A program made the position numbers and the translations under genes. The notes under the pieces were generated by a model. That model was not told the origin of the DNA and ran no database searches. It saw nothing but the letters and a program-made list of their open reading frames with translations. From the NCBI GenBank assembly GCA_903870955.1, contig CAIQEX010000645.1, positions 1 through 11,940 of the forward strand: a stretch of DNA of 11,940 nucleotides. The letters are read 5' to 3'. Below, piece after piece: positions 1 to 11,940 of this stretch (within the stretch, counting starts at the first letter, position 1; each line of letters starts with the position of its first letter). Source of the stretch: an uncultured beta proteobacterium. GTDB lineage: Bacteria; Pseudomonadota; Gammaproteobacteria; Burkholderiales; Burkholderiaceae_C.

Positions 1-482
1 ACCTGGTGACTGATCAGGTGTGCCGTGGTCAACATCGGCTGGCGCTTGAGGTTGTGCACATAGGCAAACATGGCATCGCTATTGCTGGCCTCAGCTACGC
101 CGAGCAGTTGCCGGGAAACGGTATCGGGCCGCAATTCCAGTAGCGCCACTTTGGGATTCGCCGCTTCTTCGAGCGAGTCCAGCAGTTCTTCCCACGGCAC
201 ATTGAGCTTCTTGATGGCCGTGTTGACGGACACTGCCTGGGTCGGCGTGACCTCTGGCGCGGCCGATGGGCGGACCTTTTCAACGGGTGCGTTGTCATGT
301 TCGCCAACCATGGCCAAGGCCTCTTGCACCTGCGCGGTTTGTTGCGCCAGCATCAGCATGTTCCAGCCGGCCACCAGCGACATCACCAGCGACACCACCA
401 GCAACAGCAGCACCGACCGGGGCAGCCGGTACCACAGCGAGCGCGCAGTGTGGGGGGCGAAATCAATGGCCAACGGTCTCAT
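1..482 (-). CDS. PilN-like inner-membrane assembly protein (3' end beyond window)
   Basis: This is the first 160 residues of a protein that runs off the left edge without a stop. The start is the ATG at 482, which shares ATGA with the stop of the preceding gene, a typical translational-coupling overlap. Residues 1-22 are short and cytoplasmic, 23-43 form one hydrophobic membrane segment (LPRSVLLLLVVSLVMSLVAG), and the rest is predicted periplasmic. The stretch from about residue 94 (LNVPWEELLDSLEEA) through VALLELRPD and the following GVAEAS resembles the periplasmic ferredoxin-like part of PilN/MshJ/GspL-type proteins. In that family PilN binds the actin-like PilM and PilO and links the cytoplasmic ATPase to the periplasmic channel. 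A linker at about 60-85 is rich in Pro, Ala and Val. Its place after gspG-gspF-gspE and a PilM-like gene fits that role. The family call rests on pattern and context, not a search. Confidence 0.72.
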   Translation of the reverse strand, partial: MRPLAIDFAPHTARSLWYRLPRSVLLLLVVSLVMSLVAGWNMLMLAQQTAQVQEALAMVGEHDNAPVEKVRPSAAPEVTPTQAVSVNTAIKKLNVPWEELLDSLEEAANPKVALLELRPDTVSRQLLGVAEASNSDAMFAYVHNLKRQPMLTTAHLISHQ

Positions 483-1288
483 GGCGTTACCCCAAACAAA
501 CTGGTGGCATCACAGACGTTGCCCATCACCGTGCAGCGCAGTCCGCGCGGATGCAAGCCCGTCCATTCGGAGGACACCTTGCCGCACAGCCCGAGGGCCT
601 TGGGTTCTGGCAAATTCAAGCGCGCAGCCTCGCGCTGCAGTGCCCGTTCCAGCCAGTCGCTCTTTCTCGACTCCGGCCCGTTCAATGGCAGGCGCCGTGT
701 TCCTTGCAGGCGACCCGCCACCACCACGCCCAGCAGCAGGGCGTCATCGGCACAAATGCCAAACCAGGCTTGGTCGGGCAAACTGCGTTGCCAATGGTTC
801 CACAGGGCTACGCACTCGGGCTCAAGCGACAGCAGGTGCAGGTTTTGCGCCTGCCATACCTGCTGCAGCGCAGCCAGTAACGCGCGTGGCAGGGCACAGG
901 CCAGAAAAGCATGGCGTGCGTCATAGTCGGCACGGATAAGCCAGTCCGCCGGGCTGTCACCAAAGACGGCGCTGAAGCGCATCGCCGCGGCCGCCTCGCA
1001 GTCCTGCAACCGGCTGGCGTTGGTGGGTGGCTGCACCGTCCAGCTGCGCACCAAAGCATCCGCCAGCACCACGCGCAGCGGTTGTTTCGAGACACCGGCG
1101 GCGCTCAGCACATTGGCCAAATGCTTTGGCAAATCGCTTGCGGCCTGCGCCGTCGGTTCGCCTTGCCACTGGCCCATCACGGTGCTGCGGCCCTTGCTGC
1201 CCTTGCCGCCACCGCGCTGCTGCACCAGCACGATGCGGTTGGCCGCAAGCGCCAGACCCAAGTGTCCAGGGCGCACAAAGTCAAGCAT
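479..1288 (-). CDS. Cytoplasmic PilM/GspL-like assembly protein (269 aa)
   Basis: This 269-residue protein has no signal peptide and no clear membrane segment, so it is probably cytoplasmic. It sits between the GspE ATPase gene and a PilN-like gene, the slot where type IV pilus and type II secretion loci encode an actin-like scaffold (PilM, MshI or the cytoplasmic half of GspL). Two stretches suit such a fold: a beta-rich start (LGLALAANRIVLVQ, residues 10-23) and FGICADDALLLGVVVAGRLQG (176-196), which could be the first strands of two actin-like subdomains. I see no decisive nucleotide-binding motif, and the PilM signature is weak. The ATG at 1288 overlaps the end of gspE by 8 nt, and the stop overlaps the next start as ATGA, so translation is probably coupled on both sides. 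Position is stronger evidence than sequence here. A lineage-specific protein of other function is possible. Confidence 0.6.
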   Translation of the reverse strand: MLDFVRPGHLGLALAANRIVLVQQRGGGKGSKGRSTVMGQWQGEPTAQAASDLPKHLANVLSAAGVSKQPLRVVLADALVRSWTVQPPTNASRLQDCEAAAAMRFSAVFGDSPADWLIRADYDARHAFLACALPRALLAALQQVWQAQNLHLLSLEPECVALWNHWQRSLPDQAWFGICADDALLLGVVVAGRLQGTRRLPLNGPESRKSDWLERALQREAARLNLPEPKALGLCGKVSSEWTGLHPRGLRCTVMGNVCDATSLFGVTP

Positions 1289-2951
1289 GCAAGGTCACCC
1301 GGTTGACTTCGGCCAGTGTGGTTTCGCCATTGCGCACCAGCACCAGGGCGGAATCGCGCAGGCTGCGGGTGCCCTGCTGGTGGGCCATTTCCTTGATGCG
1401 GCGAATCGGTGTCTTGTCGATGATGTGTTCGCGCAACTCGTCGGTCAGCACCAGTATTTCGGCAATCGCGCGACGTCCTTTGTAGCCCGTTCCACGGCAA
1501 TCGCCACAGCCCACCCCAGCCATGAACCTGAAGTTTTGTACCTGCGCGCGCTGCAGCCGCATGAGCTTGAGTTCCTGGTCGGTCGGCACATAGCTTTGCG
1601 AACAGTGCGGGCAATTCACGCGCACCAGGCGCTGCGCCCAAATGCCGTTGAGCGCCGAGACAAAGGAGTAGGGGTCAATGCCCAGGTGCGTAAAACGCCC
1701 CAGCACATCGAACACATTGTTGGCGTGCACCGTGGTCAGCACCAGGTGGCCGGTGAGGGCGGACTGCACCGCAATCTCGGCAGTCTCGTGGTCGCGGATT
1801 TCGCCCACCATGATCTTGTCCGGGTCGTGCCGCAGAATGGAGCGCAAGCCTTTGGCAAAGGTCAGGCCCTTTTTCTCATTGACCGGGATCTGCAGGATGC
1901 CCGGCAACTGGTATTCGACCGGGTCTTCAATGGTGATGATCTTGCTGCGACCGTCATGAATTTCGGTCAGCGCACCATACAGCGTGGTGGTCTTGCCCGA
2001 ACCGGTGGGGCCGGTGACCAACAGCATGCCATAGGCTTCTTCGGCCAAGGCACGCAGCGCGGCCAGGGACTCGGCATCAAAACCAAGTGCGTCCAGCGTC
2101 AGTGCACCGTAGGCCTCGATCATGGCGCGCTTGTCCAGGACCCGGATGACGGCATCTTCTCCATGGATGCTGGGCATGATGGACAGACGCATGTCGATAT
2201 CGCGCACGCCGGCCTTGACCATAAAACTGCCGTCCTGCGGTACCCGTCGCTCGGCGATGTCCAACTCGGCCAGCACCTTCAGGCGCGAGACCACATGTTC
2301 AGCCGTCTCAACGCCATTGACGGTGAGGGCCTGGTCCAGGACACCGTCAATGCGAAACTTTACGGCAAAACCGCCGGGTGTGGATTCAATGTGAATGTCC
2401 GACGCGCCGACCTTGAGCGCGTCGTACAAAATCGAATTCACCAGCTTGACGGCCGGGCTGGCCGACTCGTTCATGGTGATCAGCGAGAGCACGGCGACGG
2501 CCCGTGCGTCGACCCCTTCGGCCTCCCCACTGGCACCCATGCCGTCGGTGGCGCGGGCGGTCTCCTCGAGCTTGCTCAGGCAGGCGTGGATGTCCTCCTG
2601 CAGGGCCAGTTTGAAATGCACCGGACCGCCCCGGCAGCTTTCCATCCAGGTTTGCAAATCGACATCAAAGGGGTCGGCAATCACACCGGTAATTTGCCCC
2701 GCCTCGGCATGCAACAGAACGCAATGCCGCTGCAGCGCGCGCGCCAGTGGCAGCAGTTCAAAGGCCGGCGTACACGCCAGCATGTCGGCCGTCTCCAGCA
2801 CTTCCAGAGAAAAGGAATGCGCCAGCGCCTGCAACAATTCGCGCGGCGCCTCGCCCGACAAATCCACCAGCTCATTGATCAGGCTGCGCTTGGATTTGGC
2901 CGCCAGTTCACGGGCTCTGTGGTGGATGGAAAAATCGATCGTGACGGTCAT
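1281..2951 (-). CDS. gspE: GspE/PilB-type secretion ATPase
   Basis: Cytoplasmic hexameric ATPase that powers pseudopilus assembly in type II secretion and type IV pilus machines. With the ATG at 2951 it has 556 residues. The Walker A motif is GPTGSGKTTT (about 314-323). The Asp box and Walker B run through LRHDPDKIMVGEIRD (about 373-387), and the His box is HLVLTTVHAN (about 402-411). Four zinc-binding cysteines occur as CPHC (447-450) and CGDC (482-485), as in GspE and PilB. The N-terminal ~150 residues are the variable domain that would bind GspL/PilM-like and GspF partners. An upstream in-frame TTG (2954) exists, but the ATG at 2951 forms a TGATG overlap with the gspF stop and is the better start. 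The gene lies between gspF and the PilM-like gene. All catalytic motifs look intact. Whether it drives secretion or pilus assembly cannot be decided from this protein alone. Confidence 0.95.
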   Translation of the reverse strand: MTVTIDFSIHHRARELAAKSKRSLINELVDLSGEAPRELLQALAHSFSLEVLETADMLACTPAFELLPLARALQRHCVLLHAEAGQITGVIADPFDVDLQTWMESCRGGPVHFKLALQEDIHACLSKLEETARATDGMGASGEAEGVDARAVAVLSLITMNESASPAVKLVNSILYDALKVGASDIHIESTPGGFAVKFRIDGVLDQALTVNGVETAEHVVSRLKVLAELDIAERRVPQDGSFMVKAGVRDIDMRLSIMPSIHGEDAVIRVLDKRAMIEAYGALTLDALGFDAESLAALRALAEEAYGMLLVTGPTGSGKTTTLYGALTEIHDGRSKIITIEDPVEYQLPGILQIPVNEKKGLTFAKGLRSILRHDPDKIMVGEIRDHETAEIAVQSALTGHLVLTTVHANNVFDVLGRFTHLGIDPYSFVSALNGIWAQRLVRVNCPHCSQSYVPTDQELKLMRLQRAQVQNFRFMAGVGCGDCRGTGYKGRRAIAEILVLTDELREHIIDKTPIRRIKEMAHQQGTRSLRDSALVLVRNGETTLAEVNRVTLHA

Positions 2952-4150
2952 CAAAAACTTCCCGCCAGATCAAAGATCGGCATATACAAAAGCACCACGA
3001 TGACACCCACAATCAGACCGATTGCGGTCATCAACAGGGGCTCGAAACTGCGCATGAAGCGGTCAATCCAGCGTGTGATTTCGCCGTCGTAAAACTCCGC
3101 AGACTGCGTCAACATGGCGCCCATATCGCCCGAGCGTTCGCCCACGGCGAGCATGCGCATGGAAATCGACGTGGTCAGCTGCTGGGCCAAAAAGGCTTCT
3201 GACAGCGGCACGCCGGACTGTATTTGCGCCTTCGCCAGCAACAGACGCGTGCGCACTGCGGGCGTCACCACTTCACCAATCGTGTCCATGGCGGGAATCA
3301 GCGCAATGCCGCCTTCCAGCAGCATGCCCAGCGTCAGGTAGAGGCGCGAGAGCTCATAGATGCGGGCGCGCTCACCCACACCGGGAATGCGGTGCAAGAC
3401 CAGTGACCAACCGCCCAGCGCCTTGAAGCGCCGCCACATCACCGCCATGCCCACGCCCAACAGCGCCAGAAAGAGCAGCAGGCCGGTGGCATAGCGACTG
3501 GCAAATTCGCCCCACTGCAACAACAGCTCCGACATCCAGGGCAACTTGCGCCCGGCACCCTTGTAGACCTCGGCAAAACGCGGCACCACATAGGCAATCA
3601 AAAAGAAACTCACGGCACCGCCAACGCTGATCAGAATCGCCGGATAAATTGCGGCACTGACAACCTTGGCACGCACGGCATCAATGCGCCCCTGGTAGGC
3701 AATGAAGCGTTCCAGCGAGCGTGGCAAATCGCTCGTGCCTTCGGCCGCGCGCACCATGCCCAGATACAAAGGCGGAAAGATGAGTGGCTGTTCGGCCATC
3801 GCCACCGACAGCCGTTTGCCATCGCGCAGGCCTTCCAGAAGGCGCGACAGAACCGGACGCAGGGCCGCGCCACCTTCCTTTTCAAGCAGTGCTTCGAGGG
3901 CTTCCACAATGCCCAGTCCGGCGCGCAACAAGGCCAGCAATTCCTGGCTGAACAGCACCAGCGACAGCGGCGTGCGGTCCGTGCGCTGGCCCGTCAGCAG
4001 GCCCGCCAGACCCGCGCCTTCTTCACTTAGTTGTGCCACATACAAACCACGTTGTTCGATCTGTCGGCGTGCGTCCGCCGCATCGACCGCATCCACACGG
4101 ATGTCGGTCAACTGCTGCTCCGCAGTGAGCGCTCGAACAAGGTATTTCAC
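2951..4150 (-). CDS. gspF: GspF/PilC-type inner-membrane platform protein
   Basis: Polytopic inner-membrane protein on which pseudopilins are added, driven by the GspE ATPase. The length of 399 aa is normal for the family. Two T2SSF repeats are visible at about 66-190 and 265-390, each opening with a helix pair (LLALLRAGLGIVEALEAL and YLTLGMLLEGGIALIPAM). Each also carries the conserved glutamate-glycine turn (MVRAAEGTSDLPRSLERF and MLAVGERSGDMGAMLTQS). Membrane segments fall at about 168-191, 222-239 and 369-391. The start is a GTG at 4150, 12 nt after the gspG stop, and I see no in-frame ATG that would keep the N-terminal MKYLVRALTA segment typical of the family. The stop overlaps the gspE start by one base (TGATG), which implies coupled synthesis of platform and motor. 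Confidence 0.95.
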   Translation of the reverse strand: MKYLVRALTAEQQLTDIRVDAVDAADARRQIEQRGLYVAQLSEEGAGLAGLLTGQRTDRTPLSLVLFSQELLALLRAGLGIVEALEALLEKEGGAALRPVLSRLLEGLRDGKRLSVAMAEQPLIFPPLYLGMVRAAEGTSDLPRSLERFIAYQGRIDAVRAKVVSAAIYPAILISVGGAVSFFLIAYVVPRFAEVYKGAGRKLPWMSELLLQWGEFASRYATGLLLFLALLGVGMAVMWRRFKALGGWSLVLHRIPGVGERARIYELSRLYLTLGMLLEGGIALIPAMDTIGEVVTPAVRTRLLLAKAQIQSGVPLSEAFLAQQLTTSISMRMLAVGERSGDMGAMLTQSAEFYDGEITRWIDRFMRSFEPLLMTAIGLIVGVIVVLLYMPIFDLAGSF

Positions 4151-4162
4151 AGCCCGGCCTGA

Positions 4163-4591
4163 TCAGTTGCTGATGTCGGCGTTTTCGTCAGCGCCCCCGA
4201 CACGACCGTCCTTGCCCAGAGACTTGATCTTGAAATCGCCATTGCCCACGGGGAATGCGTATTGGTAGGCGTGCTTCCAGGGATCCAGAGGAATGTCCGC
4301 CTTCAGGTAGGGGCCATTCCAGCCGGCAGCCGCATCAGGCCGCTTCATCAGGGCAACAAGGCCCTCTTCATTGCTGGGGTAGCGCCCCACATCAAGCCTG
4401 AATGCATCGAGCGCCTTGGACAAGGCATCGATTTGCGACTTGGCCACAGTGACTTCGGACTTGCCGATCTGCGCAAAATATTTGGGGCCGACATACGATG
4501 CCAGCAGCCCGATGATGACAATCACCACCAGCAATTCAAGCAGCGTGAAGCCGTGCGCAAACAACTTGCGACGACGCAGTGGGGTCGACAT
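4163..4591 (-). CDS. gspG: Major type II pseudopilin GspG
   Basis: Major subunit of the periplasmic pseudopilus; 142 aa, the usual size for GspG. A basic leader (MSTPLRRRKLFAHG) is followed by the prepilin peptidase site G14|F15, the FTLLE sequence with Glu at mature position +5, and a hydrophobic helix to about residue 34. Further GspG signatures are RYPSNEEGL (70-78), GPYL...IPLDPW (93-105) and the C-terminal calcium-site loop SLGKDGRVGGADENADI (124-140). The prepilin peptidase is not in this window. The start at 4591 is preceded by AGAAAG as a plausible ribosome-binding site, inside the palindrome GAAAGCTTTC. It is the first gene of the secretion module and follows the longest intergenic gap in the window (83 bp), so it may also have its own promoter. 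Identification is secure. Confidence 0.95.
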   Translation of the reverse strand: MSTPLRRRKLFAHGFTLLELLVVIVIIGLLASYVGPKYFAQIGKSEVTVAKSQIDALSKALDAFRLDVGRYPSNEEGLVALMKRPDAAAGWNGPYLKADIPLDPWKHAYQYAFPVGNGDFKIKSLGKDGRVGGADENADISN

Positions 4592-4607
4592 GGAAAGCTT
4601 TCTATTA

Positions 4608-4635
4608 TCAATACGAGAGGGCAGACTTTAGTCAA
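4608..4635 (-). promoter_or_regulatory. Weak sigma70-like promoter candidate before gspG
   Basis: In the 83-bp gap between the coiled-coil gene and gspG the minus strand reads TTGACT (4635-4630), a 16-base spacer, then TATTGA (4613-4608). The -35 is near consensus, but the -10 matches at only three positions, and the implied leader would be only about 10 bases. The gap is AT-richer than its surroundings. A separate transcript for the secretion module is possible but not shown. I see no convincing rho-independent terminator in the same gap. Confidence 0.2.
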
Positions 4636-4674
4636 TCAATGTGACATTACGATTGCCCCTGTTTGACAACCGGG

Positions 4675-5352
4675 TTACTGCGCGCGCGTTGCGTCGACCC
4701 TCAGCGCATCGAGTTGATCGCGCACTGTGGAGCCTTCGTTTTCAAGGCGCACCTGCCCAAAGGGATTCAGCAAGCCGCCCAGCAAACCCTTGCTCTGTTT
4801 TGTGGCGGCACTTTCATAGCGCGTCAGCAAGTCGGTGTTGAGTTGGTACAGCCCGAGGTTTTGCTTTTCACAGGACTGCAGAGCGGTCTTTTGCAAATCC
4901 ATTTCACGTTGGCTGGTGGCTTGTGATTGTTTGAGTTGCACCACCGCCTGTTGCGTGCTCTGCAACTGCTGCCGTGCCGCCGCGAGGTCGGCGTTCAGTG
5001 TCGCCAGTTGCGCATTCAGCTGCGCGGCCATTTGCGCCGCAGCAGCGTCTTTTTCTTTTTGTGCCGCATCCAGTTCAAGCTGTTTGGCCGACTCTTTGCG
5101 CACCAGGGCGCGTGCACGCTCCAGATCCGATTTGGCGGCTTGCAATTTGCGTTCGGTCTCTTCCTTCTCGGTGCTCAACTGGGTTTTTTCCTGCTGCAGT
5201 GCCTGCTGCTCCTGTTGCATGCGTTGAATACGTTCCTGCTGCGCACGCGCAATCTTCTTGTCGTCGGTCGCCGCCATGCCGGAGGCGGCAAGCAGCGCTA
5301 AAACGGCACAGCCCGTGCGCAGGCCGATGCGAATGACAGCGGATGTTTTCAT
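4675..5352 (-). CDS. Exported coiled-coil protein of unknown function
   Basis: A 225-aa protein with a Sec signal peptide: basic start, hydrophobic core at 14-26 and a cleavage site near SGMA|A at 27/28. Almost all of the mature chain from about 31 to 185 is Gln-, Ala-, Glu- and Lys-rich heptad-like sequence, a long periplasmic coiled coil. A C-terminal segment (GLLGGLLNPFGQ, then RLENEGSTVRDQLDALRV) is not coiled-coil and is probably the conserved part. Cys15 lies before the hydrophobic core and has no lipobox, so it is not a lipoprotein. The start ATG at 5352 is 14 nt after the porin stop. I do not recognise a named family. From memory, similar coiled-coil genes follow putative porins in other ExbD-TonB clusters. 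A rod bridging inner and outer membranes or the peptidoglycan would suit its position, but that is inference. Confidence 0.8.
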   Translation of the reverse strand: MKTSAVIRIGLRTGCAVLALLAASGMAATDDKKIARAQQERIQRMQQEQQALQQEKTQLSTEKEETERKLQAAKSDLERARALVRKESAKQLELDAAQKEKDAAAAQMAAQLNAQLATLNADLAAARQQLQSTQQAVVQLKQSQATSQREMDLQKTALQSCEKQNLGLYQLNTDLLTRYESAATKQSKGLLGGLLNPFGQVRLENEGSTVRDQLDALRVDATRAQ

Positions 5353-5366
5353 GGTCGCCAGCTTTC

Positions 5367-7046
5367 TTAGTAACGCGTCGTCAGGTCAAGCTGCAGGGTG
5401 TCCACCGCGAGCTTGCTGTTGGGCTGTGAACCGGGTGCGTAGGAGTCAATGGAATTCGATGACATCCAGCGCGCCGACACCATGGTGTTGTTGTACAGGC
5501 CATAGTTCACGCCAAAGATCAGGCCCTTGGTGTTGGTGCCGCCCAAGCCAAAGTCCGAATTGGTAAAGGCATCCAGCACCGCATCGCTGCCCAGATAGCG
5601 GTAAGCCAACGAGGCATTCCAGTCACCCCGGCGCAAGGTGTTGGGCCCCATCTGCACCTTGGCCAGATAGCCGGTGTCGGAACCATCGTCAACCGACACA
5701 CCGGTGCGGTCCTTGATATCGCTGCGGCTGAAGCCGATGTTCTTCACATAGTCAGCCGTCACGCGCACCGGCTTGGACAGCAGGTTGGGCAGGTCCAGCG
5801 TGGCCGTCAGATTGAGTTCGCGAAAGGACGAGGCCAGACCGTAATAGCTGGTGCCGGTGTCGCCAGGCGCATTCACGCGGAACAGGGTATTGCCACGCTG
5901 GCGAAAGCCCGCCGGGTACTCATTGCGTGCGCCATAGTTGGGCACTGCGTTCAGGGCCAGCGTATCTTCCTTCTGGCCTTCGATGCCACGGTAGTCATAC
6001 AGTGCCACACCCAGCTTGAGCTGGTTGCCGCCGCCCGGTAATTTCACATCAATACCACCTTGCACGCCCATCAGGCTGCGTGAATTGGTAGTGCCCGGTG
6101 CATCGGTTGCGAGCGGAAAATAGCCCGCCGCCAGGAAGCCGTTGCCGTTGGTAAACAAGGGCTTCTTCAGGGATGCGGCAAAGCCTTCAAAGCCCAGGTC
6201 ATCGGCCCACACCAGATCGGTTGAGAAGAACGGGTTCGGCATGCGTCCGCCGCTCAGGGTCAATTGCGGAGTGGCCTTCAGCGTCACATAGGCCTGGTCC
6301 ACCACCACGGTGTATTTGTTGAACGACTGGCCCAGGGTCTGGTTGGTCGACGTGCGGTCGGTGGTGTTGCCGGTGGACAGGCGCAGGGTGGTTGCGACCT
6401 CGTCCGTCACGTTCGCCGTAACCGCGATGCGGGCGCGCAGACGCTGGCGCTCATAGTCTTCCTGGGTATTGAAGTTGGGGGTGGCAACTTTATTGCTGCC
6501 CACATTAGTGGCAATATCGGCAGCGCGTGTCAGGTCACCCTTGGCGAAAGTGCCCAGTCCGGGCGCGGTGTTGTCGCTGGATAAACGCACCATTTCCTCG
6601 CGCAGCCGGAAATCACCGTCGATCTTGATGCGCTGGGTCCACTCCGGTGTCGCGCCGGGCTCGCCCCAGCGTTCGTCTTTGGCCTGCGCCAGGACTTCCT
6701 TCTTGATCTGCTCGCGCATTTCCGTCTTCACGGCCTCGGTCACATAGGGCACGCGCACCACCTTCTTGCCATCTTTGCCAACCTCGGCCGGTGCTTCGGC
6801 GTTGACCACTGCAGCGGCCGGGGCGGTCTTGCTCTTGGCCTTGGCAGCGGCGATCAGTGCGTTGACCTTGTCACGGGTCAGCAGGCCACTGTCGACCAGC
6901 GCCTCGAGCAAAGCCTGGGTGGTGGCCTGCAGTTGTTCCAGTTCAACGCGCTCGGCGGTTTGCGCCATGGCACCGTGCGACAACAGGCCGGCGGCCAGCA
7001 GCAGCGAGACGGCTGCTTTGGGGAGAAGAATAGTTTTGGAAGTCAT
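5367..7046 (-). CDS. Putative outer-membrane beta-barrel porin
   Basis: A 559-aa exported protein with a signal peptide ending at about GAMA28|Q29. After it comes a periplasmic helical region (29-130) with a short repeat-like helix pair (LLEALVDSGLLTRDKVNALI, about 46-65) and a basic stretch. From about 135 to the end, alternating amphipathic strands and aromatic-ended turns form a beta-barrel (for example WTQRIKIDGDFRLREEM and GDWNASLAYRYLGSDAVLD), ending in LQLDLTTRY with a terminal aromatic residue as in outer-membrane barrels. The pattern resembles the putative porin family (Porin_5, PF16930), not TonB-dependent receptors: there is no plug domain and no evident TonB box. The gene follows tonB by 38 bp, with AGG about 10 bases before the ATG. 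It may be the outer-membrane partner of the energy-transducing set, or a general diffusion porin carried in the operon. Confidence 0.86.
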   Translation of the reverse strand: MTSKTILLPKAAVSLLLAAGLLSHGAMAQTAERVELEQLQATTQALLEALVDSGLLTRDKVNALIAAAKAKSKTAPAAAVVNAEAPAEVGKDGKKVVRVPYVTEAVKTEMREQIKKEVLAQAKDERWGEPGATPEWTQRIKIDGDFRLREEMVRLSSDNTAPGLGTFAKGDLTRAADIATNVGSNKVATPNFNTQEDYERQRLRARIAVTANVTDEVATTLRLSTGNTTDRTSTNQTLGQSFNKYTVVVDQAYVTLKATPQLTLSGGRMPNPFFSTDLVWADDLGFEGFAASLKKPLFTNGNGFLAAGYFPLATDAPGTTNSRSLMGVQGGIDVKLPGGGNQLKLGVALYDYRGIEGQKEDTLALNAVPNYGARNEYPAGFRQRGNTLFRVNAPGDTGTSYYGLASSFRELNLTATLDLPNLLSKPVRVTADYVKNIGFSRSDIKDRTGVSVDDGSDTGYLAKVQMGPNTLRRGDWNASLAYRYLGSDAVLDAFTNSDFGLGGTNTKGLIFGVNYGLYNNTMVSARWMSSNSIDSYAPGSQPNSKLAVDTLQLDLTTRY

Positions 7047-7084
7047 CTTGAAAACCTATAAAAATAAAACCATGGCGTTGCGGT

Positions 7085-7759
7085 TTAACGGTTGCCCGTA
7101 ACAATCAACAGGCGTATGGGCTGCGGCATGCGCTCGGGTGGTGCCTGACTGAATTCAGTGAGGCCGGCGACGGTCTGCCGGATCACTTCGTCAATATCCG
7201 TGTCCCCGCTGCTGCCGATCAACTCGTGGCGGGTCACCTTGCCATCGCGCCCGACCCACAGGTGCATCTCGACCCGGTAGCTGCGCTGGCGCAGGTCCTT
7301 GTTGCGCTGCAGGTGACGCTGCAACTCACCCTTCAGCAGGGTGGCGTAATTTTTGTTCGGGTCAAACAGGCCCTTGACCGCCGGCGGCGTAACCTGGCCA
7401 CCGCTGCCCAGGTTATTCAAATTTTCACTGGTGATTTTTCCGGATGAAAAAGCACTTGGCCCATCACCCGCTGGTCCGTCCATTTTCAGTTCCTGGGACG
7501 GTGGCGCCGGTGCCGCTTCCTTGGGCGGGGCCGGTTGGTCCACCTTGACTTCTTTTTGTTCTTTCGGTGGCTCGGGTTTGGGCGGTTCTTTGGGCGGAGG
7601 AGGGGGCGGCGGTGGCGTCGTGGGGATCAGGGAAATCTTTGGCGCCTTGTGGGTCGCTGCAGTTTTTCCCGCCACCAGTTTGTAGACGCCATAGGCCATC
7701 AGCGCCAGCACCAGCAGGGCGCCCAATCCAAGCAGAATCTTGCGAGTCAGCGCGCCCAT
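7085..7759 (-). CDS. tonB: TonB-type energy transducer
   Basis: Periplasm-spanning protein anchored in the inner membrane that passes the energy of the ExbB-ExbD motor to an outer-membrane partner. Using the ATG at 7759 it has 224 aa: an uncleaved membrane anchor at 7-29, a proline-rich spacer at about 44-90 including eight consecutive prolines (49-56) and Lys/Glu-Pro repeats, and a TonB-like C-terminal domain at about 140-224. That domain includes YRVEMHLWVGRDGKVTRHEL, then SSGDTDIDEVI and the final PIRLLIV strand. An in-frame TTG at 7801 would add 14 residues inside the upstream exbD gene. I prefer the ATG, which lies one base after the exbD stop and puts the basic MGALTRK segment directly before the membrane anchor. 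No TonB-dependent receptor follows; the next gene is a plugless porin. TonB/TolA-family membership is clear, the partner is not. Confidence 0.9.
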   Translation of the reverse strand: MGALTRKILLGLGALLVLALMAYGVYKLVAGKTAATHKAPKISLIPTTPPPPPPPPKEPPKPEPPKEQKEVKVDQPAPPKEAAPAPPSQELKMDGPAGDGPSAFSSGKITSENLNNLGSGGQVTPPAVKGLFDPNKNYATLLKGELQRHLQRNKDLRQRSYRVEMHLWVGRDGKVTRHELIGSSGDTDIDEVIRQTVAGLTEFSQAPPERMPQPIRLLIVTGNR

Positions 7760-7760
7760 G

Positions 7761-8165
7761 TCAGGTACCAATGCGCGCCGTGACCAGGCCCACGTTGCCA
7801 ATGTTCAGGCGTCCCGCCATGTCAATAATTTCCACCACGCTGACGTAGTTGGCCAGCGGGTCGCCCTTGATCATCACCGGGGTTTCGGGGTCTTTGGCAA
7901 TCGCCGCCGCAAGGCGCGACTCCAGTTCTGCCGAGGTCACCGGCGAGCCATTCAGCAGCAGGGCGCCATCCGGCATGATCTGCACGATGCGCACTTCTTT
8001 TTGCACCTGGCTGGGCTTGTTGCTTGGCTTGGGCAGATTGATCTTCAGGCCCTGCACCGAGGCCGTGGTCATGATGATGAAGATCACCAGCAACACATAG
8101 GCCAGGTCGAGCATGGGCGTCACGTTGATCGTGTCGTACGGTTTGGTTTCGGTTTCGACTTTCAT
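7761..8165 (-). CDS. exbD: ExbD/TolR-type stator protein, second copy
   Basis: A 134-aa member of the ExbD/TolR family, which pairs with ExbB in a proton-driven inner-membrane motor. It has a short cytoplasmic start and the conserved INVTPMLDLAYVLLVIFIIM segment with the proton-carrying aspartate at residue 20. A periplasmic domain of about 95 residues follows (for example PDGALLLNGSPVTSAELESRL and the final NVGLVTARIGT). The ATG at 8165 is 17 nt after the first exbD, and the stop is one base from the tonB start. It is nearly identical to its upstream paralogue through the membrane helix but differs clearly in the periplasmic domain, notably the PKPSNKPSQVQKEVR linker. The two probably work together with the ExbB fusion protein, perhaps as a mixed ExbD pair. 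Confidence 0.95.
   Translation of the reverse strand: MKVETETKPYDTINVTPMLDLAYVLLVIFIIMTTASVQGLKINLPKPSNKPSQVQKEVRIVQIMPDGALLLNGSPVTSAELESRLAAAIAKDPETPVMIKGDPLANYVSVVEIIDMAGRLNIGNVGLVTARIGT
8050..8129 (-). repeat. Near-identical exbD membrane-segment repeat, copy 2
   Basis: This 80-base stretch matches 8469-8548 at 77 of 80 positions in the same orientation. It encodes the INVTPMLD...TTASVQG membrane segment of the second ExbD, and the three differences do not change the shared protein sequence. Identity falls off on both sides. Confidence 0.9.
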
Positions 8166-8182
8166 GGCGCTTGTGTCGTCGG

Positions 8183-8584
8183 TTATTGGGCCCGGCTCGT
8201 GGCCAGCCCGATTTCGGTGATGTCCACGCGCTTGAGTGTTTCAAGCACCTGCATGACCTTGAGGTATTGGGTGTGGGAGTCGCCCTTGACGACGATGGAC
8301 TGCGCCGGGTTGCCGCGCTTGAGTTCACTCAGGCGCTGCTCGAGTTGTTCTGCGTTCACCGGATAGGTGTCCAGGTACATGTCGCCGGCCTGCGAGATGG
8401 TGATCGCCTTGACCTGCTTCTTGGCCAGGTTGTTGACTATTTTGGTCTTTGGCAGGTTCACCTTGACACCCTGAACCGAGGCCGTGGTCATGATGATGAA
8501 AATCACCAGCAACACATAGGCCAGGTCGAGCATGGGCGTGACGTTGATATCGTCATACGGCTGGTTGTCTTCCTGAATTTGCAC
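8183..8584 (-). CDS. exbD: ExbD/TolR-type stator protein, first copy
   Basis: A 133-aa ExbD/TolR-family protein directly after the ExbB-type fusion gene. It has the same architecture as its downstream paralogue: an acidic N-terminus (MQIQEDNQPYDD), a membrane helix with Asp20 in NVTPMLDLAYVLLVIFIIM, then a periplasmic domain with AITISQAGDMYLD and IVVKGDSHTQYLKVMQVLE. The start is a GTG at 8584, 12 nt after the exbB stop. The next in-frame ATG falls at Met18, inside the conserved motif, so GTG is the only sensible start. The gene ends 17 nt before the second exbD. The helix residues needed for proton flow are intact. The substrate energised cannot be read from this protein. Confidence 0.95.
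   Translation of the reverse strand: MQIQEDNQPYDDINVTPMLDLAYVLLVIFIIMTTASVQGVKVNLPKTKIVNNLAKKQVKAITISQAGDMYLDTYPVNAEQLEQRLSELKRGNPAQSIVVKGDSHTQYLKVMQVLETLKRVDITEIGLATSRAQ
8469..8548 (-). repeat. Near-identical exbD membrane-segment repeat, copy 1
   Basis: Partner of the repeat at 8050-8129. It shows 77 of 80 identical bases, counted by eye, with differences at three separate single positions. It covers the membrane segment of the first ExbD and suggests duplication followed by recent sequence homogenisation. Confidence 0.9.
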
Positions 8585-8596
8585 GCTGCTGCCCCG

Positions 8597-10336
8597 TTAA
8601 TCCGAATGCAGCTCGGCCGACTTGGTCAGGAATTCATCCGCAAACACCTGTGTGTCGGCGCTGATGTTCTTGATCTTGATGGCAAACCAGTTGTAGGCAA
8701 ACAGCGCCGGAATCGCCACCGCCAGGCCCGCCACAGTGGCCACCAGGGCCGCTGCAATACCCGGAGCAATGGCGTTGACGTTGACGTCGCCCGCGGCGGC
8801 AATGGCGGCAAAGGTAATCATCACGCCGACCACGGTGCCGAGCAGCCCCAGGAAGGGTCCACCGGAGATGGCAATCGTCAGCAGCACGATGCCGCTGTTA
8901 AAGCGCTGACCGGCCCGCACAATGTTGGCGTCGAGTGCCGCGCGAATCGACTCGAGAGCTGCGCCCGACAGGCGGTTCTTCTGTCCGTTCTCGGTTTGCG
9001 CGTTGAAGCGGTGGGCAATCTCGGCCAGTCCGACGGTGTAGATCTGGTAGATCGAGGAAGCCTGCAACTCGGGCTTGCGCTTGAGCGTCTTCACCACGCT
9101 GTGGTCGGGGTGCAGCATGTCGGTGGAGTGGTCCTTGAAGAGTTTCAGAAACGCCAGGTTGGCTTTTTCCGAGCGATTCAACAGGATGGTCTTGGTCACC
9201 ATTACCCACACACTGATCACCGCCATGATGCCCAGCACGCCAATCACCACCCAGCCGTCCAGCGTCACCGCGCCCAGCAGAATGGCGAAGTACGACACGC
9301 TCTTCTCGCCTTCAGCGTCATCGGCGGGCAGCAGCATGGTCGAATCCGCTGACTGGTTGGATGCCTGGGCCTTGATGTAGGCCGCCGAGCGGGCCACATG
9401 TGACAGCGAGACGGCGTCCAGGTCAGCCCGCAGACCTTGCCCGAGCACCAGGTCACCGGAAGCATCTGCCATCGCCAGGGGCGCGACCCCATGGGCCACA
9501 CCGTCGATATAGAAAGTCGCATTGCCAGCGGCAAAGCTCACCGCCAGGTGTTGCCAGACGCCGGGCTTCAGCGCCACGCCGGCCTGTGCCTTGCCAGCGC
9601 CCTGGCGCACCACGGCGATGCCATCGGCCAGTTCCAGTCGCAACGCGGTCACGCCACTGCCCAGGCTGAACAGACTCGAATTGTCCAGCGCCACGGGTTT
9701 GATCCAGGCACCAAAGGTCCAGCCTTCGGTGGCCGAGAGTTTCAAGGTGGCCGAGGCCGGTATCACGACACTGGCGCTGCCATCAAAAGTGGCGCCGGCA
9801 CCCACGGTTCCCAGGGCCATGGGTTTGGCGCTGGATTCACGCGGGTGGTTGGCATTGACGGTGGCGTCCTTGAAACCACCAGCCTCGGAGAAGTTCAGCG
9901 CCAGCACCTGGGCTGCATCGTAGGTGGCACGGCTGTCGCTTTCGTCGGCGGCTGCCGGGTTACCCCAGTGCATCCAGATGGCATCGGTCTTGGCGTTGGA
10001 GGCCAGCTTGGGCAACTGCACCCAGGCCACCGCCAGTTCGTTGGTGGCGTCAAAACTTTCCACAAAGTACTTCAGCGGTGTCTTGTTGTCGGAGGCGAAA
10101 AAGCGCAGATCGGAGCCATCCTTTTTGGCCTCCGAAAAAACAAAGTTGCCGCTGTGCAGGCGCACCAGCACCGGCAGTTGCGTCACCACTGCATCGGTGG
10201 CGGCACCGGTGCTGGTGGTATCGAGGATCAGCTTTTTCGATTGCGCCCAATCGTCAGCGGCCAGCGCCAGCAGCGGGTTCAGCACGATGGCCAGCAGAAA
10301 AGCCGTGGCCAGCTTTTGTAGAGTTTTCATTTTCAC
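8597..10336 (-). CDS. DUF2341-LamG-ExbB fusion: proton-channel protein with periplasmic sensor or binding domains
   Basis: A 579-aa protein with a signal peptide (1-26, LLALA|ADDW). A DUF2341-like domain spans about 29-140 (PVLVRLHSGNF, DLRFFASDN, AVAWVQLPKL, IWMHWGNP). A LamG/concanavalin-like domain spans about 143-325 (WTFGAWIKP, LKPGVWQHLAVSF, ATFYIDGV). A MotA/TolQ/ExbB domain follows, with membrane segments at about 359-382, 481-511 and 524-547 and the family core GPFLGLLGTVVGVMITF (493-509). ExbB-family topology (N-terminus outside) would put the DUF2341 and LamG domains in the periplasm, matching the signal peptide. The start is GTG at 10336, with AAGG five bases upstream; an ATG two codons on (10330) is possible but has an 11-base spacing. 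Two exbD genes follow, so this is the ExbB partner of a proton-driven motor. LamG domains in other proteins bind sugars or proteins; its ligand here is unknown. Confidence 0.93.
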   Translation of the reverse strand: MKMKTLQKLATAFLLAIVLNPLLALAADDWAQSKKLILDTTSTGAATDAVVTQLPVLVRLHSGNFVFSEAKKDGSDLRFFASDNKTPLKYFVESFDATNELAVAWVQLPKLASNAKTDAIWMHWGNPAAADESDSRATYDAAQVLALNFSEAGGFKDATVNANHPRESSAKPMALGTVGAGATFDGSASVVIPASATLKLSATEGWTFGAWIKPVALDNSSLFSLGSGVTALRLELADGIAVVRQGAGKAQAGVALKPGVWQHLAVSFAAGNATFYIDGVAHGVAPLAMADASGDLVLGQGLRADLDAVSLSHVARSAAYIKAQASNQSADSTMLLPADDAEGEKSVSYFAILLGAVTLDGWVVIGVLGIMAVISVWVMVTKTILLNRSEKANLAFLKLFKDHSTDMLHPDHSVVKTLKRKPELQASSIYQIYTVGLAEIAHRFNAQTENGQKNRLSGAALESIRAALDANIVRAGQRFNSGIVLLTIAISGGPFLGLLGTVVGVMITFAAIAAAGDVNVNAIAPGIAAALVATVAGLAVAIPALFAYNWFAIKIKNISADTQVFADEFLTKSAELHSD

Positions 10337-10362
10337 ATTCGCCTTGGGTTTATATAAATCGG

Positions 10363-11940
10363 TTAAATCTGCGGGCTAGCCGGCTTCTTGTTTTTGGTGC
10401 GGTTTTTCCGGTCTTCATCGCTTTCTTGGGCATCACTGGCCTTGTCGTCTGTAGCCTCGCCCAGGCCCAGCACTTCCACCGCCAGGTTCAGGCTTTCTTT
10501 GGCTGTGGCATTGACCTGTCGACTGACGTCCTGCGTCGCCGCAGTGGCTGTACTGGCGGGAGCAGCCTGCGTGGCCGGGCTGCTGGTATCCACGGAAACG
10601 GCACCACTGACGCCGGCCGAAGCCGAAATATTTCCGCTGTTCAGCACGACGGCCGCCTGAATCGCAACAATGCCGGTCGAGCGCACACCCGCATCACCGG
10701 CGTCAAAGATGCCGCGCGGAGCCACCGCATAGACGTTGCTGGGGTCCTGCGTGTCGGAGGTGCGCAAAGTGGCAATACCGGAACCCGCGATCGATCCGGC
10801 GATGTCGATCTTGGTGTTGCCGTTGGCATCTGTGGTCAAGAGGGGAGGGGGCGCAGAGGCCGCGGTTTTGGTGCCCCGACCCGCGTCAATATTCCCGTAC
10901 TGCGAAACCAGCGTGATGTCACCACCGCCCAGCGTAAAGACCCGACCCTGATTGACGATGAAGTTGTCATGCACCAGAGAGCGGATGGCCCCACCGCGGA
11001 CCGTGAAAAGTCCCAGATCAGCCGAAGGCTTGGACGACAGATAGATCGGCACCGACACCAGACCCGCCACCACCGAGCCTCCGGGTGTCAACAGGTCCAA
11101 AGAACCGCCTTGTTCGGTTTTGAACTGGCTGCCAAAGACATTGATGTTGCCACCGGTGATGCTGTCCGGCGCAAATGCGTCGCTGATCGCGGCGTCAAAT
11201 TCAGGCAGTGTGGCCTTGCTGCCGTAGGTCACCAGATCCTTGAACAGCGTTGCGTTGCTAGCCAACTTTTGTTGTGCGCCCAGTGCCTCATAGGATTTTG
11301 ACAATATCGCTCCGGCCACCGCGATGACACTGGCGCCGCCCTCGGGGAGATAGGCGTTGTCGAGGTTGCCGCGCGTGACCACGCCATAGCCGTTGCCCAG
11401 GTCGATGTCACGCTCGGCATTCAGGGTCAGCAAGCCCGGGCCGGTCATCACATGGGCCACCGGGCTGGCATGGTCGCGGTTGGTGCTGTCGATGATGTCG
11501 CGTCCAGCCTTTACCAGGGTTTGTGCCGCAGCGCCGTCCTGCTGGATCCTGAAGCCCAGATCCTGAATATCCCGCCCCGCCAGAATCTCAGCCGCTTTGG
11601 GCAGGTTCAGGGAGGCCACGGTATCGGCCTGACCATTGATGTCCCCGGTCAGCGCAATGACCCGCACCGGTTGCGCATCATCGGCATGCAACTGACCGGG
11701 TGTATGCAAGGCCAGTCCGGTGCCGCCGCCGGTCATGATTTTGCGGTCAGTCGCGTTGAGCAGGCTGGGCGCAGTGAGGTTGGACAGGCTGCCGGGTGCG
11801 AAGTCCAATACCGATATCCCGGAATAGAGCACTGCATTGCTGGCCAAGCTGACGGATTTCTGGGCCAGCAGTTCGAGTTGACCCGCAGCCGACGGCGCCA
11901 GACTAAAGCCCTGTGCGCTGCCCAGATTGCCACTCAAAGC
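10363..11940 (-). CDS. Filamentous-haemagglutinin-family surface protein, C-terminal part (5' end beyond window)
   Basis: An open frame enters from the right edge and ends at 10363, giving 525 residues without a real start. The sequence is Gly-, Ala-, Ser- and Asn-rich with repeated short beta-strand units such as AGRDIQDLGF, AGRDIIDS and NAERDIDLGNGYG, typical of beta-helical haemagglutinin adhesins. The segment GGDITLVSQYGNIDAGRGTK followed by APPP (about 338-365), and VAPRGIFDAGDAGVRSTG (405-422), match what I remember of DUF3739 (PF12545), the C-terminal domain of a filamentous-haemagglutinin subgroup. After about residue 450 comes an Ala/Thr/Ser linker, VEVLGLGE, then an acidic and finally basic tail (to KNKKPASPQI). 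There is no transmembrane barrel or LPXTG-type anchor. The exbB fusion gene starts 26 bp downstream, so the adhesin and the motor are probably co-transcribed. The secretion signal would lie outside the window. Confidence 0.86.
   Translation of the reverse strand, partial: ALSGNLGSAQGFSLAPSAAGQLELLAQKSVSLASNAVLYSGISVLDFAPGSLSNLTAPSLLNATDRKIMTGGGTGLALHTPGQLHADDAQPVRVIALTGDINGQADTVASLNLPKAAEILAGRDIQDLGFRIQQDGAAAQTLVKAGRDIIDSTNRDHASPVAHVMTGPGLLTLNAERDIDLGNGYGVVTRGNLDNAYLPEGGASVIAVAGAILSKSYEALGAQQKLASNATLFKDLVTYGSKATLPEFDAAISDAFAPDSITGGNINVFGSQFKTEQGGSLDLLTPGGSVVAGLVSVPIYLSSKPSADLGLFTVRGGAIRSLVHDNFIVNQGRVFTLGGGDITLVSQYGNIDAGRGTKTAASAPPPLLTTDANGNTKIDIAGSIAGSGIATLRTSDTQDPSNVYAVAPRGIFDAGDAGVRSTGIVAIQAAVVLNSGNISASAGVSGAVSVDTSSPATQAAPASTATAATQDVSRQVNATAKESLNLAVEVLGLGEATDDKASDAQESDEDRKNRTKNKKPASPQI

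What the first reader, a model, noticed from the sequence alone, without database searches (positions are those of the whole stretch)
1..11940. Candidate energised surface-protein export or display machine
One co-directional block encodes a haemagglutinin-like giant protein, an ExbB fusion, two ExbDs, TonB, a plugless porin, an exported coiled coil and a pseudopilus module with its own ATPase. Gaps are 83 bp or less, with several stop-start overlaps. These parts normally belong to separate systems: two-partner secretion or adhesin, TonB uptake, and type II secretion. Their union suggests a machine using both proton-motive force and ATP to move or anchor one large surface protein. From memory, Pseudomonas aeruginosa has an FHA-type gene (pdtA) near exbB/exbD paralogues and the hxc type II genes, which would be a partial parallel; this needs checking.
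Basis: partly seen in the sequence, partly recalled or inferred. Interest (0 to 1): 0.75.

Follow-up and report, generated by a model that had tools for sequence, protein, structure and literature searches.

The report
Surface-fibre operon with own proton motor
A bacterial gene cluster couples a giant secreted surface fibre to its own proton-driven motor, an outer-membrane pore and, in many cases, a piston-type secretion system; similar clusters occur in other proteobacteria, and what they do is unknown but now testable.

Summary
On the minus strand the window carries DUF3739 TpsA (C-terminal part), DUF2341-LamG-ExbB, two ExbDs, TonB, Porin_5, a coiled coil and gspG-F-E plus two further genes, with gaps of 83 bp or less and three overlaps. 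TpsA continues, and TpsB lies, on a contig that overlaps the window's end. The union is not chance. In 399 genomes of the order, DUF3739 and strong Porin_5 matches coincide (38 of 39; 38 of 40). One GspF lineage, called by score, occurs in 33 of 39 DUF3739 genomes against 97 of 360 others, and within about 27 kb in 18 of 39. The remembered Pseudomonas aeruginosa parallel (Hxc, PdtAB, ExbB2D2, TonB4, PA0696-0697) is correct and published; its Ton part has no assigned function. The ATP half is optional: seven loci read on both sides lack a T2SS, so one PMF-plus-ATP machine for one protein is not shown. New here: a short conserved motif in TpsA's disordered tail (93 of 95 tails; 0 of 15 other TPS tails), a possible docking site for a periplasmic partner. 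A test for identity with TonB boxes was inconclusive. Most likely a surface capture-and-uptake system.

The parts
10363..11940 (-). C-terminal 525 aa of the giant TPS exoprotein (TpsA); N-terminal part on contig C81
   Evidence: PF12545 105 bits; contig C81 overlaps the window end by 179 bp at 99% and carries PF05860 and TpsB; beta-helix model aa 1-445
10600..10926 (-). DUF3739 domain, end cap of the beta-helix
10459..10494 (-). conserved short motif SLNLAVEVLGLG (family consensus P-S-[FI]-[LI]-[TS]-V-[ED]-V-[LI]-G-[FLY]-G) in the disordered TpsA tail
   Evidence: low-confidence (disordered) aa 452-524 in the model; absent from 15 complete other TPS tails
8597..10336 (-). ExbB fusion: N-terminal DUF2341 and LamG-like domains, C-terminal MotA/TolQ/ExbB channel
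8183..8584 (-). ExbD 1, with the transmembrane Asp
   Evidence: Asp pattern surveyed
7761..8165 (-). ExbD 2, with the transmembrane Asp
   Evidence: Asp pattern surveyed
7085..7759 (-). TonB-like protein: one hydrophobic N-terminal segment, Pro-rich spacer, TonB_2 C-terminal domain (ORF open from 7801; likely ATG at 7759)
5367..7046 (-). Porin_5: N-terminal helices and VRVPYVTE segment, then a 16-strand barrel without plug
4675..5352 (-). exported coiled-coil protein (CC) at the place of PA0697
4163..4591 (-). GspG-type major pseudopilin
   Evidence: PF08334 124 bits; TIGR01710 157 bits, over its cut-off of 89
2951..4150 (-). GspF-type platform protein
   Evidence: PF00482 158 bits; own GspF lineage
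1281..2954 (-). GspE/PilB-type assembly ATPase with MshEN domain
   Evidence: PF00437 408 bits, PF05157 38 bits
479..1288 (-). GspL/PilM-position protein (no family match; named by conserved order)
3..482 (-). PilN-position protein, cut by the contig end
   Evidence: no family match itself; its G035 homologue matches PF05137 weakly, E 0.001, below the curated cut-off

Best explanation
This is a two-partner (type Vb) secretion locus with its own Ton motor and outer-membrane porin, next to a T2SS-like pseudopilus. TpsB exports TpsA, a fibre of about 3500 aa. ExbB-ExbD-TonB, with a lectin-like domain on ExbB, converts proton-motive force into pulling at the outer membrane. I think the most likely job is capture and uptake: the surface fibre gathers a ligand, probably phosphorus-containing, the T2SS exports small helpers such as the PBP-like protein encoded before tpsB, and the Ton complex acts on Porin_5 and/or on TpsA's periplasmic tail to bring the ligand in. 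Shown: gene content, near-obligate genome-level pairing of DUF3739 with strong Porin_5, recurrent T2SS linkage, the conserved tail motif, the barrel and beta-helix models. Inferred: the ligand, the direction of transport, which protein TonB touches, and the T2SS cargo.
For: DUF3739 (39 genomes) and strong Porin_5 (E<1e-70, 40 genomes) share 38 of 399 genomes. Of 65 DUF3739 matches found I fetched 62; 53 have 7 kb or more downstream; 44 of these 53 have ExbB within 10 kb on the same strand and 38 the whole ExbB-ExbD-TonB-Porin_5-CC set. Of 80 loci found by ExbB alone, 73 carry TpsA or TpsB and 72 Porin_5. T2SS lineage: 33 of 39 against 97 of 360 genomes; 18 of 39 within about 27 kb. Exported proteins with weak phosphate-binding-protein similarity (PDB 4ecf, E 0.0015) sit directly before tpsB. 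In P. aeruginosa the homologous cluster is switched on by phosphate starvation together with the Hxc-secreted phosphatases (passages). TPS plus a TonB-dependent barrel has a proven precedent in HxuABC (passage).
Against: The porin has no plug and is not a known TonB-dependent transporter. Nine of the 53 loci lack a nearby same-strand ExbB, and seven genomes have weak Porin_5 matches without DUF3739. ExbB lacks the TM3 glutamate of TolQ/ExbB in 118 of 118 distinct proteins, so its proton path may differ. The PBP relation is weak: Pfam E 0.024 for one of the four such proteins scanned and none for the other three or for the two scanned. A Pho-box-like scan gave only 6 of 31 upstream regions at or below 5% of shuffles. 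P. aeruginosa insertion mutants in tpsA, tpsB, tonB4 and PA0696 were as virulent as wild type in zebrafish (passage). I saw no uptake shown for any member in the passages read.
Confidence: 0.45

Rival explanations
1. A proton-driven motor for the fibre itself: TonB grips the TpsA tail (or Porin_5 bound to it) and pulls, moves, retracts or releases the fibre on the cell surface, as AglRQS/Glt or GldLM move adhesins (recalled).
For: Conserved short motif in a disordered tail behind a folded beta-helix, absent from 15 of 15 complete other TPS tails; one ExbB with two ExbDs in the window and in 26 of 80 ExbB-found loci, as in AglR with AglQ and AglS (recalled); the TonB protein's best NCBIfam hit is GltJ, weak at 24 bits and in its spacer region.
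Against: 54 of 80 ExbB-found loci show one ExbD or fewer at E<1e-40; I did not search the loci for gliding genes; the motif did not behave like the TonB boxes of receptors in five related genomes.
Confidence: 0.2
2. Ton-assisted export or display of TpsA: PMF, and perhaps the pseudopilus, are needed to get TpsA out or to hold it.
For: TpsA, TpsB, Ton and T2SS genes are found together in several different arrangements.
Against: Other TPS systems need no energy at the outer membrane (established knowledge); seven loci read on both sides have no T2SS gene, and the GspF lineage is present in 97 of 360 genomes without DUF3739.
Confidence: 0.15
3. Separate systems kept together only by shared regulation (nutrient starvation, surface signalling): TPS adhesin, porin uptake and T2SS enzymes act independently.
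For: In P. aeruginosa the whole set is one VreI/PhoB regulon, with separate pdtA and phdA promoters; T2SS neighbours come from different GspF lineages.
Against: DUF3739 and strong Porin_5 matches are almost always in the same genomes, and the order ExbB-ExbD-TonB-Porin_5-CC is largely kept across alpha-, beta- and gammaproteobacteria.
Confidence: 0.2

Closest known systems
Pseudomonas aeruginosa Hxc - PdtA/PdtB - ExbB2/ExbD2/TonB4 - PA0696/PA0697 cluster (PUMA3/VreI regulon; PMC2729926, PMC4971064, PMC7035377, passages read)
   Same: T2SS beside TpsA, TpsB, ExbB, ExbD, TonB, a putative OM porin and a signal-peptide protein. A Klebsiella quasipneumoniae plasmid copy (L251) has the same TpsA-to-PpiC gene set without a T2SS in the stretch; its exoprotein matches the TpsA tail model (436 bits) and bears the motif
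   Different: Window: T2SS placed behind the coiled-coil gene in the same run; two ExbDs; no YbjN, PpiC or ECF sigma genes in the window. Whether Hxc and the window's T2SS are the same lineage was not tested. PdtA itself could not be fetched, so its DUF3739 and motif are not tested.
Haemophilus HxuC/HxuB/HxuA (TPS plus TonB-dependent receptor; PMC5422565, passage)
   Same: Surface TpsA working with a Ton-energised outer-membrane barrel
   Different: HxuC is a TonB-dependent transporter with a plug (plug recalled); here the barrel is a plugless Porin_5 and Ton proteins are encoded in the locus
TonB-ExbB-ExbD and TolQR motors
   Same: ExbB channel domain, ExbD with transmembrane Asp, Pro-rich TonB
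   Different: DUF2341-LamG domain on ExbB; no TM3 glutamate (0 of 118); often two ExbDs
Veillonella OmpM1 (PDB 8byt), the best fold match of the porin
   Same: Porin barrel; OmpM1 is named an outer-membrane attachment porin
   Different: No SLH domain was found in this protein; the N-terminal segment differs (OmpM1's is recalled)
Type II secretion / type IV pilus-like systems
   Same: GspG, GspF, GspE and, in G035, a secretin
   Different: Inner-membrane proteins follow a PilM-N-O-P-like layout by position; no GspC was recognised by Pfam or NCBIfam in the G035 array

Membership tests
Type Vb two-partner secretion | N-terminal TPS domain on the exoprotein | tested here: met
   PF05860, E 1.8e-21, on the C81 part of the own genome; the family is found in all 26 DUF3739 genomes searched
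Type Vb two-partner secretion | POTRA plus ShlB/FhaC barrel transporter encoded next to it | tested here: met
   L014:8897-10498, ShlB 94 bits, POTRA_2 63 bits; not inside the window
TonB-ExbB-ExbD motor | ExbB channel domain and ExbD with transmembrane Asp | tested here: met
   Asp found in 140 of 151 ExbDs, pattern not found in 11
TonB-ExbB-ExbD motor | TM3 glutamate of ExbB/TolQ (GIAEAL) | tested here: not met
   Ala, Gly or Ser in 118 of 118 distinct fusions; aligned to TolQ
TonB-ExbB-ExbD motor | TonB C-terminal domain | tested here: met
   TonB_2 27.5 bits against cut-off 22; TIGR01352 below its cut-off
TonB-dependent transporter | plug domain in the barrel protein of the locus | tested here: not met
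   No plug in the Porin_5 model and no plug family match
TonB-box protein (TpsA tail) | TonB-box sequence | tested here: inconclusive
   Conserved V-x-V-x-G core, but a model of 30 receptor N-termini put its best site on the motif in its commonest register in only 10 of 95 tails; mean score reached by 9 of 500 column permutations; reverse scan not significant
Type II secretion system | GspE, GspF, GspG | tested here: met
   GspG over its NCBIfam cut-off, GspE and GspF below theirs
Type II secretion system | secretin | tested here: met
   In G035 (L021:340-2229) and other loci; the window ends before it
Type II secretion system | shown secretion of a folded periplasmic cargo | not testable with these tools
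   needs experiment
Pdt-Ton-porin cluster of P. aeruginosa | TpsA, TpsB, ExbB, ExbD, TonB, porin and coiled-coil gene set | tested here: met
   against the published gene list; TpsB lies on contig C81
Pdt-Ton-porin cluster of P. aeruginosa | DUF3739 and tail motif in PdtA | not tested
   PAO1 sequence not fetched; tested only on the plasmid copy L251 with the same gene set

The most novel reading that the evidence does not exclude
The conserved tail motif of DUF3739 exoproteins stays in the periplasm below the TpsB pore and is the handle that the dedicated TonB pulls: an energised two-partner secretion system in which proton-motive force acts on the secreted fibre itself, with a pseudopilus as a second energised partner in many lineages.
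Probability: 0.18. Interest if true: 0.85.

Novelty: new variant of a known kind. Interest (0 to 1): 0.6.

Why it matters
Type V secretion is taught as needing no energy source at the outer membrane. A TPS fibre tied almost without exception to its own proton motor and porin would be an exception or a new kind of uptake machine. The same set in P. aeruginosa is strongly induced in phosphate starvation, and its pdtA promoter is active in infected zebrafish, yet its Ton and porin genes are described as of unknown function. The module boundary, the porin partner and a 12-residue tail motif give specific deletions and binding assays in environmental bacteria.

Tried and rejected
Tail motif as an ordinary TonB box: not supported by two tests. 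In one search some receptor frames (such as L226, L234, L237, L245) were read on the wrong strand; one search fixed the strands. The 30 receptor loci are those fetched, of 80 matches listed.

Porin N-terminal VRVPYVPE as the TonB contact: strict pattern in 51 of 103 porins of 480 aa or more, looser variants in some others; left open.

TpsA model against the PDB: no match with E at or below 0.001.

T2SS marker by the GspL-like protein: too divergent, so GspF was used. A first count from the mostly downstream stretches alone (7 of 53 loci with GspE/F) understated the T2SS linkage, because 14 of the 18 linked copies lie upstream. The genome-wide GspF list was cut off in the output and was not used for counts. 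On re-checking, the secretin matches in the upstream stretches L214, L217 and L219 are weaker than E 1e-6, so I do not count them as T2SS.

Phosphate control from Pho boxes: the consensus was recalled; 6 of 31 regions at or below 5% of shuffles; weak.

Literature: DUF3739 is in no held paper. DUF2341 with ExbB is in two: passages of PMC12505986 name DUF2341 only as an unknown extra domain of such motors; the coral genome paper I judged by its listing. Searches joining TPS with Ton or T2SS terms listed the P. aeruginosa papers as the close cases; the other papers I saw only as listings, apart from the passages named here. Of PMC2729926, PMC4971064, PMC7035377, PMC5422565 and PMC9769906 I read passages only. 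The original PdtA paper is not held and was not read. RNA families and tRNAs: none in the window.
Full report
What is in the window. The minus strand carries, in order, the last 525 aa of a DUF3739 protein, a DUF2341-LamG-ExbB fusion, two ExbDs, TonB, Porin_5, an exported coiled coil, GspG, GspF, GspE and two ORFs at the GspL and PilN places. Gaps are 83 bp or less, with three overlaps at the gspF-E-L-N junctions. The window is a whole contig of a metagenome-assembled genome; contig C81 overlaps its right end by 179 bp at 99% and carries the rest of the giant protein, with a TPS domain, and its transporter TpsB. The complete order is seen in G035, a genome of the same genus: TpsB-TpsA-ExbB-ExbD-ExbD-TonB-Porin_5-CC-GspG-F-E-L-N-O-P-secretin-pilins (L to P named by position). 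So the giant protein is a two-partner (type Vb) exoprotein, not an orphan.

How conserved the union is. DUF3739 occurs in 39 of 399 sampled genomes of the order and in 24 of 370 of the class sample, one of these below the family cut-off. In the same 399 genomes Porin_5 matches in 47 (E<=0.001), 40 of them strongly (E<1e-70); 38 of these 40 have DUF3739 and 38 of 39 DUF3739 genomes are among them. The exceptions are G166, whose DUF3739 lies near a contig end, and G117 and G300, where the porin matches are fragments; the seven weak Porin_5 genomes all lack DUF3739. Of 65 DUF3739 matches I fetched 62 (not G443, G521, G631); 53 had at least 7 kb downstream. Of these 53, 44 had ExbB within 10 kb on the same strand and 38 the complete ExbB-ExbD-TonB-Porin_5-CC set. 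The genomes' relatedness was not corrected for.

The T2SS part. A GspF tree has 12 linked rows and 20 GspF/PilC rows from elsewhere in such genomes (two linked rows were too short). The downstream-linked GspFs of the window, G035, Limnohabitans (L083), a Rhodocyclaceae MAG (L084), G073 (L048), a Gallionellaceae MAG (L095) and a gammaproteobacterial MAG (L113) form one group with full support; L067, L080 and L089 (the last a copy of L067) form a second; L031 groups with another GspF of its own genome; L149 is a long lone branch (midpoint root, long branches warned of). A profile of six of the first group (A7), run over the 399 genomes with at most four candidates scored in each, matches with E below about 1e-99 in 33 of 39 DUF3739 genomes and 97 of 360 others; at 1e-140, 31 of 39 and 62 of 360. 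Membership in the lineage is by score, not by tree. In 18 of 39 the match lies on the same contig within about 27 kb: 14 upstream by 23 to 27 kb in the same direction, that is, before tpsB; 2 downstream; 2 downstream and convergent. Of the other 21, one has it 700 kb away (G239), 14 on another contig (in G050, G228, G256, G352, G386 and G406 the DUF3739 contig reaches far enough to exclude an upstream neighbour; in 8 the contig is too short to tell), and 6 have no such match. I then read 20 upstream stretches. Thirteen were chosen because GspF was known to be there: they show a run of GspG-F-E-L-N-O-P-D-pilins before TpsB and TpsA (some small genes not recognised in some loci), with LuxR and PEP-CTERM genes in the two loci scanned, and PBP-like exported proteins before tpsB; ten such proteins from the 20 stretches align in A8. 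The other seven, read on both sides of TpsA, show no gspD, E, F or G at E<1e-6; three have only weaker secretin matches. A Cupriavidus plasmid has annotated gspD, E, F, G, H-like, I, K, L and M genes, mostly divergent from TpsB-ExbB-ExbD-TonB-porin. Thus the T2SS is a frequent companion, acquired more than once, and not an obligatory part.

What the proteins look like. The TpsA end is a beta-helix closed by DUF3739 (342 of 524 residues at pLDDT 90 or more) followed by about 70 residues of very low confidence, read as disorder. Across 95 dereplicated intact tails (from 121), a 12-residue motif, P-S-[FI]-[LI]-[TS]-V-[ED]-V-[LI]-G-[FLY]-G, ends within 40 residues of the C-terminus in 85; on held-out scoring 93 of 95 exceed the 99% level of shuffles (motif positions were set on the full set before the folds, and these are homologous proteins). 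None of 15 complete tails of other TPS proteins passes (20 fetched of 32 such matches, 5 of them not complete). The exoprotein of the Klebsiella plasmid cluster, not used in training, scores 30 bits. In some tails a second copy follows, such as VQVLGAG (read by eye). The porin is a 16-strand barrel with N-terminal helices and no plug; best fold match OmpM1. ExbB matches TolQ best among solved structures but has Ala, Gly or Ser where TolQ and ExbB have the TM3 glutamate, in 118 of 118 distinct fusions.

Is the tail motif a TonB box? It shares a V-x-V-x-G core with boxes such as LPSVEVVG and LPEVAVVG in receptors of related genomes. A box model from 30 receptors scored tails better than most column permutations (9 of 500 as high) but placed its best site on the motif in only 10 of 95 tails in the commonest register; the reverse scan was not significant. 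I therefore call it a docking motif of unknown partner.

Known relatives. In P. aeruginosa, hxc, lapA, pdtA, phdA, pdtB, exbB2, exbD2, tonB4, PA0696 (putative porin), PA0697, PA0698 (YbjN) and PA0699 (PpiC) belong to one VreI regulon that also needs PhoB; PphdA transcribes phdA to PA0701 (passages of PMC7035377, PMC4971064 and PMC2729926). Llamas and co-workers already noted the association of the PUMA3 genes with TPS, ExbBD and PA0696 homologues in P. fluorescens, P. entomophila, B. vietnamiensis, R. palustris and Janthinobacterium, with hxc-like genes named for P. fluorescens and B. vietnamiensis. The Ton system is called uncharacterised and PA0696-PA0700 of unknown function. PdtA, PA0696 and Hxc proteins rise strongly under phosphate limitation. 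The window is thus a variant of this published cluster type, with the T2SS behind the coiled coil, two ExbDs, and no PUMA3 genes in the window.

Mechanism. I favour capture and uptake (confidence 0.45): a surface fibre, a dedicated Ton motor, a porin, and T2SS-exported helpers, perhaps for phosphorus. Support is circumstantial: the P. aeruginosa regulation, the HxuABC precedent, the PBP-like gene before tpsB with weak similarity to phosphate-binding proteins, and weak Pho-box-like sites. A fibre motor, Ton-assisted export, and mere co-regulation remain open.

Noticed in passing
8597-10336 (-); 118 ExbB fusions: The TM3 glutamate of ExbB/TolQ is replaced by Ala, Gly or Ser in 118 of 118 distinct fusions, so the proton path of these fused ExbBs may differ.
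   Followed up: partly
L014:10671-12275 (-), L203-L217: A family of exported, PBP-like proteins (hSGASAP ... RRxxGSGTQ) is encoded directly before tpsB; weak match to phosphate-binding proteins; a possible T2SS cargo.
   Followed up: partly
L251 (Klebsiella quasipneumoniae plasmid pKqq_SB98_1, 116736-150445): A plasmid typed as conjugative carries the TpsA-TpsB-ExbB-ExbD-TonB-porin-CC-YbjN-PpiC-LysR set behind a sigma-70 and a DUF4880 gene, much as in P. aeruginosa.
   Followed up: partly
L024, L029, L031, L038, L154, L251 TpsA tails: Some TpsA tails hold a second, similar motif copy (such as VQVLGAG) some 20 to 40 residues after the first; seen by eye.
   Followed up: no
L067, L080: A second, distant GspF lineage with several pilins sits behind the coiled-coil gene, suggesting a separate recruitment of a T2SS.
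   Followed up: partly
L252 (Cupriavidus plasmid NZ_CP017750.1): Annotated gsp genes (D, E, F, G, H-like, I, K, L, M) lie beside, mostly divergent from, TpsB-ExbB-ExbD-TonB-porin on a plasmid; no TpsA in the stretch shown.
   Followed up: no
L016:1090-1599 (-), L017:12601-13104 (+): A gene resembling low-molecular-weight phosphatases or arsenate reductases (VLFLCTGNSARSILAEA; named from memory) lies near DUF3739 in two genomes.
   Followed up: no
L205, L206, L217, between the T2SS genes or upstream genes and tpsB: PEP-CTERM proteins (three of three loci scanned) and LuxR-type regulators (L205, L206) lie upstream of tpsB.
   Followed up: partly
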